A stretch of DNA of 64,000 nt. Source: Ardenticatenales bacterium. GTDB lineage: Bacteria > Chloroflexota > Anaerolineae > Epilineales > Epilineaceae. The translations under genes were made by a program, and so were the position numbers. The notes beneath the pieces are model-generated. The model was not told the origin of the DNA. It ran no database searches and was given only the letters and a program-made list of their open reading frames with translations. Positions 3,013 through 8,300 of this stretch are shown one piece after another; within the stretch, counting starts at the first letter, position 1; the number at the start of each line of letters is the position of its first letter. Location: contig JADYYS010000011.1 of assembly GCA_020853525.1 (NCBI GenBank), positions 32,856 through 96,855 of the forward strand, read 5' to 3'.

Positions 3013-3651
3013 ATGACCTTCAAGATCGACCGTCGCGTGTTCTATGCCGCCCTGGCCGTCCTCGCACTCGGCGGGGCGCTGGCCGTCGGCCTCCTGGTCG
3101 GTCGCGGGACCGGCGCGCCGGGCAGTACCGCCCAGGTGGACGCCCCGGCCGACCCCGCCGCCCTGCCCACATCCGCCGTGGCGCCGATCGACGGCGCCCC
3201 CACCGTCGACCCGGCGTTCGCCGAGCTGCCGCGGATCGAGATCGCGGACGCGTTCCAGCGATTCGAGCAGGGCGACGCGCTCTTCGTGGATGCGCGCGCG
3301 CCCGGTGAGTTCACCTACGAGCACATTCCGGGCGCGGTGAACATCCCGTACACCGAGGCCGAGGCCCGCATGGGCGAGCTGCCGACGGACAAGGACATCA
3401 TCGTCTACTGTGCCTGACCGTCCGCCCAAGAAAGCGTCCGTGCGGCGCAAACGTGGGTGGACAAGGGGATGAAGAACGTCGTCGTCATGTGGGACGGGTT
3501 GAATTCGTGGAAGTCCGCCGGCCATCCGGTCGATCCGCCCGCCGCGGGCGGTGCCGCCGACCCGGGCGCAGCGGGGGCTGCCGACGACGGCAGCGCGCCG
3601 CTGATGATCACGGTGCCGGCCGGCAGCGCCGCGACGCCGGTGCTGCCCTGA
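3013..3651 (+). CDS. Membrane-anchored rhodanese domain protein with in-frame UGA (probable selenocysteine)
   Basis: ATG 3013 follows AAGGAAA with good spacing; ATG 2971 is an in-frame alternative without such a site. Residues 8-30 form one membrane segment, so the single rhodanese domain (about 75-165) should lie outside the cytoplasm. D-A-R at the start of the domain and H-I-P-G-A-V-N-I-P are typical rhodanese motifs, followed by D-I-I-V-Y-C133-A. Codon 135 is TGA (3415-3417). The same frame then continues with the rest of the fold (S-V-R-A-A-Q, K-G-M-K-N-V, W-D-G-L-N-S-W, A-G-H-P-V), a Gly/Ala/Pro tail and a stop at 3649-3651. No frameshift is needed. Position 135, two residues after the usual catalytic Cys, is often Cys in related Y-C-x-C-P rhodaneses (from memory), so Sec is the natural reading and would give a C-A-U motif. 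A hairpin directly downstream supports this. The alternatives are a nonsense mutation or a base error. Known role of the family: sulfur transfer or thiol redox; the substrate is unknown. Confidence 0.7.
3415..3462 (+). promoter_or_regulatory. Putative bacterial SECIS hairpin after the in-frame UGA
   Basis: Two bases after TGA 3415-3417, the arm GTCCGCCCA (3420-3428) pairs with TGGGTGGAC (3454-3462): nine consecutive pairs with one G-U. Inside, a symmetric A-rich 5x5 internal loop (AGAAA/AAACG) leads to an upper stem GCGTC (3434-3438) with GGCGC (3444-3448) and a five-base loop CGTGC. The loop starts 21 nt after the UGA and has G as its second base. That agrees with the bacterial SECIS model as I recall it (loop 16-37 nt from UGA, a G among its first two bases). 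Folding was done by eye. Confidence 0.55.
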
Positions 3652-3685: not shown

Positions 3686-5386
3686 TCATCGGGGTCGTGC
3701 CCAGATCCAGGCATAGTCGATTCCGTTCAGCCGGACGACGTGTGTCGGCGGTCGCCCCTCGACCGCCGACAGGATCTCCTCCGGCTCGCCGATCTGCCGG
3801 TCGTCGATCATGACGACGAGCCAGCCGGCGTCGCGCCACTTCTTGGGCGCCACGATGCGGCCACGATAACCGTACGCGAGCAGAACGTCGCTGGCTGTGG
3901 CGACGGTGTGCTCCGCCGCGGTCGACCACCCGGTGCGATCCTGGGCATGCAACCATGCCACGACGAGGTCCGAGCCCTCGCCCCAGCCGACGGGCAGCAC
4001 GCGCGCCGCCGCCGGCCCGCCGCCGAGGAGCGGGTTGTACCACGCCAGGTAGGTCGGGTGGTGGGCCACGACGAACGCGGCCTGCAGCGCGACCGCCGCC
4101 GCCAACGCCGCGGCCTGCCGTCGCGCCTGCCGCCCGACATGGCCGACGCCCCAGAGGTCCGCCACGGCCCACGCCGACGGCGAAGGCGTCGCGGTGTCGG
4201 GCGCATCGATCGCGACCCCCTCCCGCGCCTGCCACCGCCGCGCGGCGTCGACGAGGACCACGAGCCCGACCGCCGCCACGACGTCGAGCGCCGGCAGGCT
4301 GGGGAGCATGTAGCGCTCGAACTTCTTGGCGCCCGCACCCATCGCCAGCACGAAGACCACCGCCCACGCCAGCAGCAAGGCCGCCGTCCACCGCCCACGC
4401 CGCGCCTCGCGCCCGGCCGCGAAGACGCCGACCGCCAGCCCCACGAGCGACAGCGGCGTCATCCGCCAAGGGATCGCGGCCAGGTAGAGGCCGATGCCGG
4501 GGTCGGGCGAGACCCGCCCGGCAAAGAAGACGGCCTCGCGCGCCTGCCCCGCGCCTTCGGCCGCGTACGCCAGCATGCGCTGGAATGTCTCGACGGGTGC
4601 GACCCACATCGCCGGCCAGACGGCGACGTACGTGATGGCGGCCGCAACGGCGACGACGACGCCGGCGTCCAGCCACCGCACGAGGCCGTCGCCCACACGC
4701 GTCCGACTCCGGCTGCGCACGGCGTCGACGACGATCCGCACCGTGATGACCGCCGCGACGAATGCTCCCAGGACGAGCATCGGCGACTTTTCCACGATCG
4801 CCAGGCCGGTCGCGACGCCCGTGGCGATGAGCCAGCGCTTCGAGGGCGCGGGTGGCGCGCTGTCGAGCCGGCGCGCGAGGACGTCGAGCCAGCGCGCCAG
4901 GCAGAGGACGGCGACGAGGGCGAGCGAGGCGGCGACGGCGTCGAGGTGGAGGACGCGGCTGTGGGCGAGGAGGTAGGGGTCGAAGGCGAGGAGGGCGGCG
5001 GCCGTCGTCGCTGCCGGCGTGCCGACGAGGGGGCGGGCGAGCCACCAGGCGAGGGCGATGGCGAGGGCGGTGAGGAGGGCGATTGCGGCGCGCATGCCGT
5101 CGAGCGGATCGACATCGTCATCGACGACGGACTCCGACGGGCGATCGGCAATCGCCAACGCCACCGCGCCGGCCCACATCGTGACGACGCCCGGGTGCTC
5201 GCGCTGGAAGGTCTGTCGGAGATCGCCGCCCTCGAGCGCTTGCAGGAATGCGGTCGACCGCTCGGCCCACGTCGGCTCGTCCCAGGTGACGAAGCGGGCG
5301 GGGGCGAGGAGGCGGGGGGCCAGGGCTAGGGTGAAGATGGCGAGGCAGGCGAATGAGGTCGCGATGCGACCACGTGAGGCCCTCAC
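3686..5386 (-). CDS. GT39-type membrane glycosyltransferase
   Basis: Multi-spanning membrane protein of about 566 residues, related to the dolichyl/undecaprenyl-phosphate mannosyltransferase (PMT/ArnT, GT39) superfamily. The first membrane helix is followed by the acidic external loop V-T-W-D-E-P-T-W-A-E-R, where the catalytic Asp/Glu pair sits, and then by E-H-P-G-V-V-T-M-W. About ten further hydrophobic segments follow. These enzymes transfer a sugar from a polyprenyl-phosphate donor to an acceptor outside the membrane; the acceptor here is unknown. GTG 5386 overlaps the stop of the upstream gene as GTGA, which suggests translational coupling; ATG 5416 is an alternative that would overlap by 34 bases. 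It is the last gene of a three-gene glycosyltransferase operon and converges on the rhodanese gene. Confidence 0.8.
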   Translation of the reverse strand: MRASRGRIATSFACLAIFTLALAPRLLAPARFVTWDEPTWAERSTAFLQALEGGDLRQTFQREHPGVVTMWAGAVALAIADRPSESVVDDDVDPLDGMRAAIALLTALAIALAWWLARPLVGTPAATTAAALLAFDPYLLAHSRVLHLDAVAASLALVAVLCLARWLDVLARRLDSAPPAPSKRWLIATGVATGLAIVEKSPMLVLGAFVAAVITVRIVVDAVRSRSRTRVGDGLVRWLDAGVVVAVAAAITYVAVWPAMWVAPVETFQRMLAYAAEGAGQAREAVFFAGRVSPDPGIGLYLAAIPWRMTPLSLVGLAVGVFAAGREARRGRWTAALLLAWAVVFVLAMGAGAKKFERYMLPSLPALDVVAAVGLVVLVDAARRWQAREGVAIDAPDTATPSPSAWAVADLWGVGHVGRQARRQAAALAAAVALQAAFVVAHHPTYLAWYNPLLGGGPAAARVLPVGWGEGSDLVVAWLHAQDRTGWSTAAEHTVATASDVLLAYGYRGRIVAPKKWRDAGWLVVMIDDRQIGEPEEILSAVEGRPPTHVVRLNGIDYAWIWARPR

Positions 5387-8300
5387 CGCACCGTCACCCG
5401 TCCGACCTTCACCCACCCGTCGCTGCCCGTCGCGCCGTCGCCCGTCGCGGCCACCGGCGCGTCGCTCCCGTCGGCGGCCGTCAGGCGGACGACGATGTCG
5501 TAGCGACCGGCAGCCTGCACGTCGGCGACGAGGATGTGGCGATCACGGATGACCTCGCCGCCGATCCACGACGTGATCCGCCGCCGGCCGTCGGCGGGGG
5601 CGAAGCCTTCGGCGGACACGACGTCGCCGTCGCCATTCATGAAGCCGATCCAGAAGAGCTGGTCGGTATCGGATTGCGTCAGCGCCTCCCACCACAACGT
5701 CACCGTCACCGGGGCGTTCGCGTCGACGCGGCTGGCGGCGACCTCGGCCGCACGGAGCTTGGCGAGGTCGCCGAACGTGACGTCGCGCGGGGCGTCGGAC
5801 GGCACGTCGGGCGGCGGGTCGTAGATGCGGAGGGGGCCGTCGATCGTGAATGGTGCGGTGAGTGACGCCCAGCCGTCCGGACCTTGACCGCGCAAGGGCC
5901 GCTGATCCGCGTCGAGCAGCGTGAAGCGGATGAAGCCCTCGCCGGCCATCGCGCGGCCGTAGATCGGGGCGTAGTAGTCCGCTCGGAGGCGGTCGCCGGC
6001 TTGCCACCGGTCGACGGGCAGCGCGACGATCGGCGCCGTCATGTCGCTGACGTTGGCGCCGATCGTGTCGGTGATGCGGATGTGGACGAAGGCGGGCAGA
6101 GACGTGGGGGTCCCGACCGTGGCGGTCGTCGAGGTCGAGGCGCCGGCCGGGACGGACCAGACAGCGGTCACCGCCGCGGCGTTGCCTGCCTCGACCGGCC
6201 GGTCCACGTCAAAGCCCCAGAGCGCGGCGGCGTCGGCGAGCGGAGCGTCGATGTGGCCGTGCGTCAGGCCCAGCGCCGAGTCGTCGAAGGCGACGGCGGC
6301 GCGGCCGACGTCGATCGGGAAGGCGAAGACACCGTCCGGCAGCCGCTGCTCGTCCGTCAACGGCGTCGGATCGCCGGCCGGACGTGCCGCGGCGTCGAGG
6401 CGGCGGCCGGTGCGGCCATCATAGACGCCGATCAGCAGCGTGTAGCGTCCGGGGACGGTGCCGGCCGGGACGGACACGACGCGGCGGTCGAGCGCGGTCT
6501 CGTTCAGCGGCCATTGCGAGGTGGGGCGACCGGCGGCATCGAGCAGCGGCCGATCGTCCTGGGCAAGCCGACGCGCGCCGATCACGCCGACGTCGGCGGC
6601 CGGAACGAGATGAAAGAAGCCCACGAGGTCGGCGTCGACCGCGGCCGGGCGCTCCCAGCGCAACGTGATCGGCAACCCACGCCCGGGCTCCGCCGCGCGT
6701 GTCGGCACGTCGATGCCGACGAGGACAACGCCGACGGCCGGATCCGCCGGATCACGGTCGAAGTAGCCGATCGGCTCCGACAACGCCGCCGTCGTGCGGA
6801 TCTGCATCGTCGTGCTGACACCGGACGAGGCGCCGCCGTCCGCCGTCGGGTCTACGCCCGCCGGCGCGCCGCCGCTCGTCAGCGGATCGACGACGGATGG
6901 ACCGGCGGTGTCGGTCTGGACTTCCGGCGCCCGGTCGAAGCGCGATACGCGCAGCTCGTCGTACGCGCTGTCGGCGGTGCGGTAGGCGTTCACGGCCAGC
7001 GCATCGTCGACGCGGCGGAGGGCGCGGTACGGGACGACGTCTTCGTAGCGGACCCACCAGAGGCGTTCGTGCGTGATGAACGCTGCCTCGAGCAGCGCGT
7101 CGACGGCCTCGTCCGTCGCGTCCGGATCGACCTCGATGACGACGAGGGGGCCGCTGTAGCCGCGGGCGAAGCCGGAGCCGGCGCGGACGAGGACGGCGTC
7201 GCGGGCGGGGTCGGCGCGGTCGTCGATGAAGTGGGCCGCCGGCTCCCAGTTGCGGTTGGCGAAGACCCAGCCGTACGTCAGATCGCCCACCTTCATCGTC
7301 AGCTCGGGCGCCACGACGGGCGTTGGGGCATGGTCGGGGCGGGCCTCGGGGCCGAAGTAGCGGTCGATCAGCTCGGGGTCGAGGATCCGCTGGAGCTGGT
7401 TGCGGTAGAAGACGAAGTAGTCCGTCATAGCCGGGTCGATGTCGTCCATGCCGTACGCCGTGCCCTTGAACTGCGGGCCGACGACGGATCGGTAGCGCGT
7501 GGCCAGCTGGAGCGTCTCGGGCGAGGGCTGTGCGTTCAGGTAGGCCGCCGCCTGGTCGAGCCCCTCGCCCCAGCCGAGGAGGAGCGCGAACTCACCGGCC
7601 CGCGATCCGCCGACGAGCGGGTTGTAGCCGTCCAGGAAGTAGGGGCGGTGGGCATAGAGCGTGAAGGCGAGGGACCACGCGACGGCGAGCGCGCCGAAGG
7701 CGATGGCGCCCTCGGCTTGGATGGCGGCCATCGTGGCGTCCACCGACGATGTCGCCGACGTCGCTGAGGTCGCTGAAGCCGCCGAAGCTGCCGAAGCCGT
7801 CGACGCGTCGGTGTCGTCCCGATCGTCCGCCTGCTTGCGGCGCATGCCGCGCTCGCCCCATGCGACCAGGGCGGTGGCGATGCCCCAGCCGGCGACGATG
7901 TTCAGTGCCGGGAAGACGGGCAGGAGGTAGCGGTCGAACTTCTTGGCGCCGCCGGTCATGATGAGGGCGAAGAGGAGGGCGAAGGCGACGAGGGCGAGGA
8001 GGATCGGGCGGACGGTGCGTGGTGGGACCGCGGGGAGGCGTTCGGCGGCGGGCGAGGGCACGGCATGCCGTGCCCCTACACGGCCCTTGGGCTGGACCCC
8101 CAGGCTCGCGGGATCGTCGTCTGGCAGGCGCGCATCATCTAAGAGCCCCTCGTTCTTGCCACCACCGTGGTGTAGGGGCACGGCATGCCGTGCCCCCGCG
8201 CGGTCCCCGGAACGACCGCCGGCCTCCACCAGTTCACCGCCTGGCTGCGCACCACGGCGCCGCCATCCGAACCACGCCGCCAACACCAACCCCAGCATCG

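What the first reader, a model, noticed from the sequence alone, without database searches (positions are those of the whole stretch)
3013..3651. A rhodanese with in-frame UGA and a SECIS-like hairpin: probable new selenoprotein
Seen: the rhodanese frame reads through TGA at 3415-3417 with no shift, and the downstream half of the fold is intact. A 9-pair stem begins two bases after the UGA, with a 5x5 internal loop, a 5-pair upper stem and a CGTGC loop 21 nt from the UGA. Known: bacterial Sec insertion uses such a hairpin, and Sec-containing rhodanese-related proteins have been reported from metagenomes (from memory). Inference: Sec135 replaces a Cys two residues after the usual active-site Cys, giving C-A-U, in a membrane-anchored rhodanese of a probable Chloroflexota. 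The third codon positions are A-rich exactly in the internal loop, as if RNA structure were selected.
Basis: partly seen in the sequence, partly recalled or inferred. Interest (0 to 1): 0.88.

Follow-up and report, generated by a model that had tools for sequence, protein, structure and literature searches.

The report
Selenocysteine rhodanese with a coding hairpin
This bacterial gene holds an in-frame UGA codon followed by an RNA hairpin that is conserved across dozens of relatives; the codon is most likely read as selenocysteine, giving a predicted membrane-anchored rhodanese with a selenium atom in its active-site loop, a kind of selenoprotein that is already known, although relatives with two such codons seem not to have been described.

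Summary
The rhodanese frame 3013-3651 runs through TGA 3415-3417, and the described hairpin is the minimum-energy fold. The genome has tRNA-Sec, SelA, SelB and SelD, and SelD has its own in-frame TGA. From 396 genomes of the class I recovered 80 distinct genes with TGA in exactly this column, in 74 genomes. RNAalifold on them returns the same 5-bp stem and loop, with compensatory, mostly synonymous changes that protein-preserving shuffles do not reproduce. Database relatives mostly stop exactly here or have Cys; one has Thr. A base error, a dead gene or a TGA sense code are unlikely. The kind is known: rhodanese "CxU" is in print, and NF041203 is the best NCBIfam hit, though below cut-off (59.5 against 115 bits). 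So this is an unannotated member of a known kind. The surprise lies beside it: 10 of the 80 genes, and 6 of 119 stretches found by pattern, carry UxU; I found no description of that. The chemistry is inferred: persulfide or thiol redox work outside the membrane; which of residues 133 and 135 attacks first is unsettled.

The parts
3013..3651 (+). rhodanese selenoprotein gene, 212 residues, read through TGA 3415-3417, stop TGA 3649-3651
   Evidence: homologues
3031..3099 (+). predicted N-terminal membrane anchor (model helix 7-29), with K4, R7 and R8 at its start
   Evidence: helix 7-29 in the AlphaFold2 model; orientation (rhodanese outside) inferred from the positive-inside rule, recalled
3256..3516 (+). 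rhodanese domain, residues 82-168
3409..3411 (+). Cys133 codon TGT, likely the rhodanese nucleophile; TGA in the UxU relatives
   Evidence: hhalign and BLASTP place the canonical catalytic Cys on 133 with a 2-residue gap after it; strand 128-132 ends just before it; the ungapped phmmer alignment to 6mxv instead puts 135 there
3415..3417 (+). in-frame TGA, predicted selenocysteine 135
   Evidence: TGA in this column in the 80 distinct genes recovered; Cys in 22 database proteins, Thr in one
3434..3448 (+). core of the predicted bacterial SECIS: 5-bp stem 3434-3438/3444-3448 with loop CGTGC 3439-3443
   Evidence: RNAalifold and pair counts on 80 relatives; synonymous shuffles; own fold
3420..3462 (+). 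lower 9-pair stem (3420-3428 with 3454-3462) closing a 5x5 internal loop
   Evidence: minimum-energy fold of the window; not conserved as fixed pairs in the family

Best explanation
The gene at 3013-3651 carries an in-frame UGA that is most likely decoded as selenocysteine by the genome's own SelA, SelB, SelD and tRNA-Sec, directed by the hairpin 3418-3466, so that it would make a membrane-anchored rhodanese with the active-site motif Cys133-Ala-Sec135. Shown by sequence: the frame, the predicted fold of the RNA and its covariation in relatives, the machinery genes, and the conservation of UGA or Cys in this column. Inferred: an N-terminal anchor holds the rhodanese domain outside the cytoplasmic membrane. 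Cys133, the likely nucleophile, would accept sulfane sulfur (or attack a disulfide or persulfide), and Sec135, two residues on in a loop that is two residues longer than usual and lacks the canonical CxxGxRS anion pocket, would resolve it through a Cys-Sec selenylsulfide, which a thiol partner then reduces. On this reading it works as a persulfide or thiol reductase rather than as a classical thiosulfate:cyanide sulfurtransferase.
For: tRNA-Sec over the gathering score, and ARAGORN tRNA-Sec with anticodon tca; SelB 325 bits, SelA 537 bits, SelD 362 bits, each over its cut-off. SelD itself has an in-frame TGA in ..AACAG-TGA-ASKMG.., followed by a hairpin with loop CGGA. 80 distinct relatives with TGA in the same column: 67 CxU, 10 UxU, 3 with altered loops. 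RNAalifold returns only the stem 20-24/30-34: 99.3% of 400 cells paired, three of five pairs with double changes; 392 of 395 cells paired against 379.3 (sd 1.0, maximum 384 of 2000) when codons are permuted within column and amino acid. On a quick tree, of 11 independent pairs that differ at stem position 21 (C or T), on average 6.8 differ in the matching way at 33, 0.0 in the opposite way and 4.2 not at all; median p 0.016, range 0.016-0.125. Of 62 database relatives, 24 end one residue after a YC-type site, 1 ends just before it, 22 have CxC. The four bSECIS limits quoted in PMC13188914 are met. TGA is otherwise a normal stop: 17 of 25 window ORFs selected by length and codon-position GC. 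Nucleophile at 133.
Against: No protein or selenium data. One database relative (P0061) has Thr in the Sec column, and 14 of the 62 are other rhodaneses. SelB was not found as a full gene in 10 of the 74 TGA genomes (read by eye); three, perhaps four, of these show a partial SelB match; 9 of the 10 have SelA over cut-off, and 9 of 10 a tRNA-Sec match over cut-off, one of them weak (G030, 49.5 bits). One single-contig genome (G250) has no recognisable SelB. SelB is common in the class anyway (314 of 396), so co-occurrence discriminates little. The lower stem is not conserved. The family's usual P-x-E after Sec is P-S-A in the window. The nucleophile is not certain: the ungapped alignment to 6mxv and several pairwise alignments put the canonical Cys on residue 135. 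No conserved gene neighbour emerged. The N1-N2 pair of the SECIS loop model (C-C here) does not form.
Confidence: 0.82

Rival explanations
1. It is a selenoprotein, but Sec135 is itself the rhodanese nucleophile and Cys133 the resolving residue.
For: From 135 to Ser141 the spacing equals that of the canonical C-x-x-G-x-R-S loop; the ungapped alignment to 6mxv and several pairwise alignments put the canonical Cys on 135; selenium is the better nucleophile (recalled chemistry).
Against: Profile-profile and BLASTP alignments put the canonical Cys on 133, as does the MAFFT alignment for P0011 and P0013; in the model the strand ends at 132, directly before Cys133.
Confidence: 0.25
2. It is a selenoprotein, but works as an ordinary sulfurtransferase: a persulfide is handed to an acceptor, with Sec135 only tuning reactivity or binding the acceptor.
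For: Rhodanese fold, with sulfurtransferases such as GlpE among the solved matches.
Against: The loop differs from the canonical CRSGNRS paralogues and lacks their G-x-R; residue 135 is UGA in 80 genes and Cys in 22 database proteins, which suggests a redox pair; P0061 with Thr is an exception.
Confidence: 0.25
3. TGA 3415-3417 is a true stop: the product is a 134-residue truncated protein and the rest is a decaying remnant.
For: Database proteins of the close relatives end exactly here.
Against: The TGA relatives keep rhodanese sequence in frame beyond it, by eye; nearly invariant residues lie downstream (A145, G152, G162, W166, P172); the hairpin covaries.
Confidence: 0.02
4. A sequencing or assembly error turned TGY into TGA.
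For: None beyond the window being one assembly.
Against: Database relatives of 97, 83 and 65-67% identity end at the same residue, and TGA in this column is seen in 74 genomes.
Confidence: 0.01
5. TGA is a sense codon (Trp or Gly) in this organism.
For: The frame is open if TGA is read as a residue.
Against: TGA ends 17 of 25 selected window ORFs and ends selB and selD; the column is Cys, not Trp, in 22 homologues; Sec machinery is present.
Confidence: 0.01

Closest known systems
NCBIfam NF041203 rhodanese_LYCAU (rhodanese-like form 3, CxU, in PMC13188914; COG0607 form 2, CxU, in PMC9312934)
   Same: PF00581 fold, Sec two residues after a Cys in the active-site loop, predicted bacterial SECIS behind the UGA; best NCBIfam hit of the window protein.
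   Different: The window protein scores 59.5 bits against a cut-off of 115 and has a predicted N-terminal membrane anchor and a low-complexity C-terminal tail. L185, L196 and L210, from records named Desulfarculales, Nitrospiraceae and Deltaproteobacteria, pass the cut-off.
Rhodanese-like selenoproteins form 1 (UxxS), forms 2 and 4 (UxxG) of PMC13188914
   Same: Rhodanese domain with a predicted Sec.
   Different: By the motifs listed there, one Sec and no Cys two residues before it; seen as table passages only.
TsoB rhodanese/DsbD fusion-like selenoprotein (NF045694, UxxxxU)
   Same: Rhodanese-related, two Sec (compare the UxU relatives).
   Different: Different motif and a far longer protein (572-position model); the window protein scores 33.3 against 805.
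DedA-rhodanese fusions with CxC (P0024, P0026, P0032 and others)
   Same: Nearly identical loop, such as YCTCPNEATSARVAL, with Cys in the Sec column.
   Different: Cys instead of Sec; the rhodanese is fused to a DedA/SNARE-associated membrane domain (PF09335), not to a single anchor.
GlpE/PspE single-domain thiosulfate sulfurtransferases
   Same: Fold.
   Different: Far below the GlpE and PspE cut-offs (38.5 against 102; 33.2 against 102) and a different active-site loop.

Membership tests
CxU rhodanese selenoprotein (PMC9312934 COG0607 form 2; PMC13188914 form 3) | Rhodanese domain PF00581 | tested here: met
   57.3 bits, cut-off 22.2, residues 82-168
CxU rhodanese selenoprotein (PMC9312934 COG0607 form 2; PMC13188914 form 3) | Motif CxU: in-frame UGA two codons after a Cys codon of the active-site loop | tested here: met
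   TGT GCC TGA at 3409-3417; same motif in 67 of 80 relatives
CxU rhodanese selenoprotein (PMC9312934 COG0607 form 2; PMC13188914 form 3) | Bacterial SECIS: loop 3-9 nt, upper stem 4-16 bp, G in the first two loop positions, 16-37 nt from UGA, MFE -7.5 or lower (PMC13188914) | tested here: met
   5-nt loop CGTGC, 5 bp, G second, 21 nt, -25.4 kcal/mol; the N1-N2 pair that most loops have is absent
CxU rhodanese selenoprotein (PMC9312934 COG0607 form 2; PMC13188914 form 3) | Sec machinery in the genome | tested here: met
   tRNA-Sec, SelA, SelB, SelD over cut-off
CxU rhodanese selenoprotein (PMC9312934 COG0607 form 2; PMC13188914 form 3) | Selenium in the protein | not testable with these tools
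   needs 75Se label or mass spectrometry
NCBIfam NF041203 equivalog | Score at or above the curated cut-off of 115 bits | tested here: not met
   59.5 bits; six of ten relatives scanned also fall below it, four pass
Classical thiosulfate sulfurtransferase (GlpE/PspE) | Curated family score | tested here: not met
   NF001195 38.5 against 102; NF007627 33.2 against 102
Classical thiosulfate sulfurtransferase (GlpE/PspE) | Canonical CxxGxRS active-site loop (motif recalled) | tested here: not met
   CAUPSAQES instead; compare CRSGNRS in other rhodaneses
Classical thiosulfate sulfurtransferase (GlpE/PspE) | Thiosulfate:cyanide activity | not testable with these tools
   needs enzyme assay

The most novel reading that the evidence does not exclude
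The CxU rhodaneses are one side of a switchable all-selenium active site. In 16 recovered relatives both residues of the pair (columns 133 and 135) are encoded by UGA (UxU), decoded by one and the same hairpin (loop 27 and 21 nt from the two UGAs, both inside the 16-37 nt range). This second Sec has been gained or lost repeatedly (at least 12 changes on a quick tree), giving a rhodanese that would work through a Sec-Sec pair. The window's protein is the one-selenium state of this system.
Probability: 0.5. Interest if true: 0.72.

Novelty: new member of a known kind. Interest (0 to 1): 0.52.

Why it matters
The gene is hidden from annotation: database versions of close relatives stop at this residue, so 24 of the 62 relatives returned appear only as pieces of 82-167 residues. 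The synonymous covariation gives a strict signature, independent of the protein, for finding such genes, and the CxC, CxU and UxU series offers a natural test of what selenium adds to persulfide chemistry.

Tried and rejected
Rejected: true stop, base error, and TGA as a sense codon (see rivals). SelB co-occurrence as a proof: SelB is over cut-off in 314 of 396 class genomes, so it hardly discriminates. Lower stem and internal loop as conserved SECIS parts: not supported family-wide. Gene neighbourhood as a clue to function: 463 neighbour ORFs of 149 loci, chosen by length without a gene finder, gave no recurring neighbour worth naming; the largest cluster spans 12 loci on mixed sides and strands, and some clusters look like spurious high-GC frames. 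Viral contigs: 11 stretches matched a pattern, none a relative. Papers: Chloroflexota with selenoprotein gave 8 papers, none on this by title and start of abstract. 'UxU' searches gave a SELENOP metal-binding review (one passage read) and a Salmonella paper (listing only). 'Double selenoprotein' with rhodanese gave only PMC13188914, where 'UxU' does not occur. deep-Sep (PMC12013277) does not name rhodaneses or Chloroflexota in its main text. A first parse of loci read only one strand and misplaced minus-strand genes; redone in six frames. A first pattern count gave 19 CxC proteins; reading the unclassified 18 added 3 CxC and 1 C-A-T.

Rows dropped: loci L037-L046, L048 and L049 (other loops) were left out; L096 (one codon shorter) was left out; identical DNA was counted once (G222's copy adds a genome, not a gene). 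The listing was cut, so weaker matches were not seen; titles were shown for 80 of the 119 stretches. The pattern fixes part of the hairpin, so its hits do not count as evidence for the hairpin; the counts use only genes found by protein searches. The tree test mixes both sets; the pattern left the two tested letters free (C/T and A/G).

Full report

Is the UGA recoded? The window's genome (G000, 4.27 Mb, 96.85% complete) has a tRNA-Sec at 68.3 bits, gathering score 47, called tRNA-Sec with anticodon tca by ARAGORN, plus SelB, SelA and SelD over their cut-offs. SelD itself is a second predicted selenoprotein, with TGA in ..AACAG-TGA-ASKMG.. and a hairpin with loop CGGA 16 nt behind it. TGA is otherwise a stop here: it ends 17 of 25 window ORFs selected by length and codon-position GC, and ends selB and selD.

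Relatives. In the 396 class genomes searched, 227 match the family model at E 1e-20 or better. From the listed rows and I recovered 80 distinct genes with TGA in this column, in 74 genomes counting one identical copy: 67 CxU, 10 UxU and 3 with altered loops. The listed matches down to 5.5e-32 all contain a TGA; open frames appear only below that, and the 10 of these that I read, with one own-genome paralogue, have other loops. In the protein database, of 62 relatives returned by two searches, 24 end one residue after a YC-type site, 1 ends just before it (P0036), 22 have CxC, 1 has C-A-T (P0061) and 14 are other rhodaneses. The stop codon behind those 24 is not shown by that database.

The hairpin. 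Of 400 cells 99.3% pair, and three of five pairs show double changes: C-G to U-A (9 genes) and to A-U (1) at position 21/33, C-G to U-A (2) at 24/30, G-C to C-G (1) at 20/34. Most are synonymous: Ser AGC with Ala GCG against AGT with GCA. Permuting codons within column and amino acid gives 379.3 paired cells (sd 1.0, best of 2000: 384) against 392 of 395 observed; drawing codons from outside the hairpin gives 251.7. With relatedness controlled on a quick tree, of 11 independent pairs that differ at 21, on average 6.8 differ in the matching way at 33, 0.0 oppositely and 4.2 not at all; median p 0.016, range 0.016-0.125. The lower stem of the window is stable but is not conserved as fixed pairs.

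How it most likely works. Sec insertion follows from the parts above; no step is shown at the bench. The rest is inference. Against canonical rhodaneses the loop has two extra residues. Profile-profile and BLASTP alignments put the canonical catalytic Cys on 133, with the gap after it, and the model's strand ends at 132; but the ungapped alignment to 6mxv and several pairwise alignments put it on 135. I take Cys133 as the likely nucleophile and Sec135 as the resolving residue, and keep the reverse as a rival. Either way a C/U pair in the loop, without the canonical G-x-R, points to redox work on persulfides or disulfides. The N-terminal anchor, and three relatives whose N-termini look like lipoprotein signals (L034-L036; motif recalled), suggest the outer face of the membrane.

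What is known. PMC9312934 (passages) lists COG0607 form 2 with CxU, and PMC13188914 (passages) lists rhodanese form 3, NF041203, CxU, and gives the bSECIS limits that the hairpin meets. PMC1088965 (passages) reported rhodanese-related selenoproteins from the Sargasso Sea. By the published definition (domain plus Sec motif) the window protein belongs to the CxU kind; by NCBI's NF041203 cut-off it does not (59.5 against 115). Of ten relatives scanned all have NF041203 as best hit and four pass (L185, L196, L210, L250).

Range. They translate in frame through the UGA into rhodanese-like sequence by eye, L190 being doubtful. The 80 titles shown name Chloroflexi, Acidobacteria, Deltaproteobacteria, Nitrospirae, Rokubacteria, Gemmatimonadetes and others, and Dictyobacter aurantiacus.

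The unexpected part. Ten of the 80 class genes and 6 of the 119 stretches, none shared, read UxU, with TGA at codon 133 as well. On a quick tree of 201 sequences the state changes at least 12 times among 187 rows. Nine of the ten UxU class genomes have SelB; the tenth, G250, has SelA and tRNA-Sec but no recognisable SelB. Both UGAs lie within 16-37 nt of the same loop. I found no description of a UxU rhodanese.

Weak points. Mostly metagenome assemblies, no protein data, short alignments, a quick tree, and class-wide abundance of SelB (314 of 396). SelB is present at E 1e-70 or better in 64 of the 74 TGA genomes by my reading. Of the other 10, 9 have SelA over cut-off and 9 a tRNA-Sec match over cut-off, G030's being weak at 49.5 bits; G291, 70% complete, has neither over cut-off. 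The tRNA-Sec model also passes its cut-off in 5 of 14 control genomes.

The nucleophile is now stated as likely, a rival was added for residue 135, the CxC count rose from 19 to 22 with one Thr exception, and confidence fell from 0.85 to 0.82.

Noticed in passing
L026, L034, L047, L099, L106, L113, L121, L124, L125, L126; L148, L172, L205, L226, L249, L250: UxU rhodaneses: TGA at codon 133 and at codon 135, with one hairpin behind both.
   Followed up: partly
L096, L101, L024: Altered loops with Cys directly before Sec: YC-SD-CU, YC-GR-CU and YG-DR-CU; in L024 the usual Cys after Tyr is Gly.
   Followed up: no
L018 (G000:C30:144400-145326, minus): SelD of the same genome is itself a predicted selenoprotein, with a hairpin whose loop is CGGA.
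   Followed up: partly
P0024, P0026, P0027, P0029, P0031-P0033 and others: CxC versions of this rhodanese are fused to a DedA/SNARE-associated membrane domain (PF09335).
   Followed up: partly
P0061: A DedA-rhodanese fusion with Thr in the Sec column (YCATPHEFTSARVAL), the one exception seen.
   Followed up: no
L138 (G000:C41): The same genome has a CxC paralogue with loop YCECPHHES; similar CxC paralogues lie in G003, G004 and G005 (L131, L135, L128).
   Followed up: no
L023, L028: N-termini with two CxxC pairs (zinc-ribbon-like, by eye) before the membrane helix.
   Followed up: no
L034, L035, L036: Lipobox-like N-termini (LAGC, LGAC, VSAC), suggesting lipoprotein versions; motif recalled.
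   Followed up: no
L184 (NZ_BIFQ01000002.1): Dictyobacter aurantiacus S27, a named strain record not marked as a MAG, has a CxU rhodanese frame of 612 residues.
   Followed up: no
5090-5178, minus: ARAGORN calls a tRNA-Gly inside a long minus-strand ORF (3686-5416); probably a false call.
   Followed up: no
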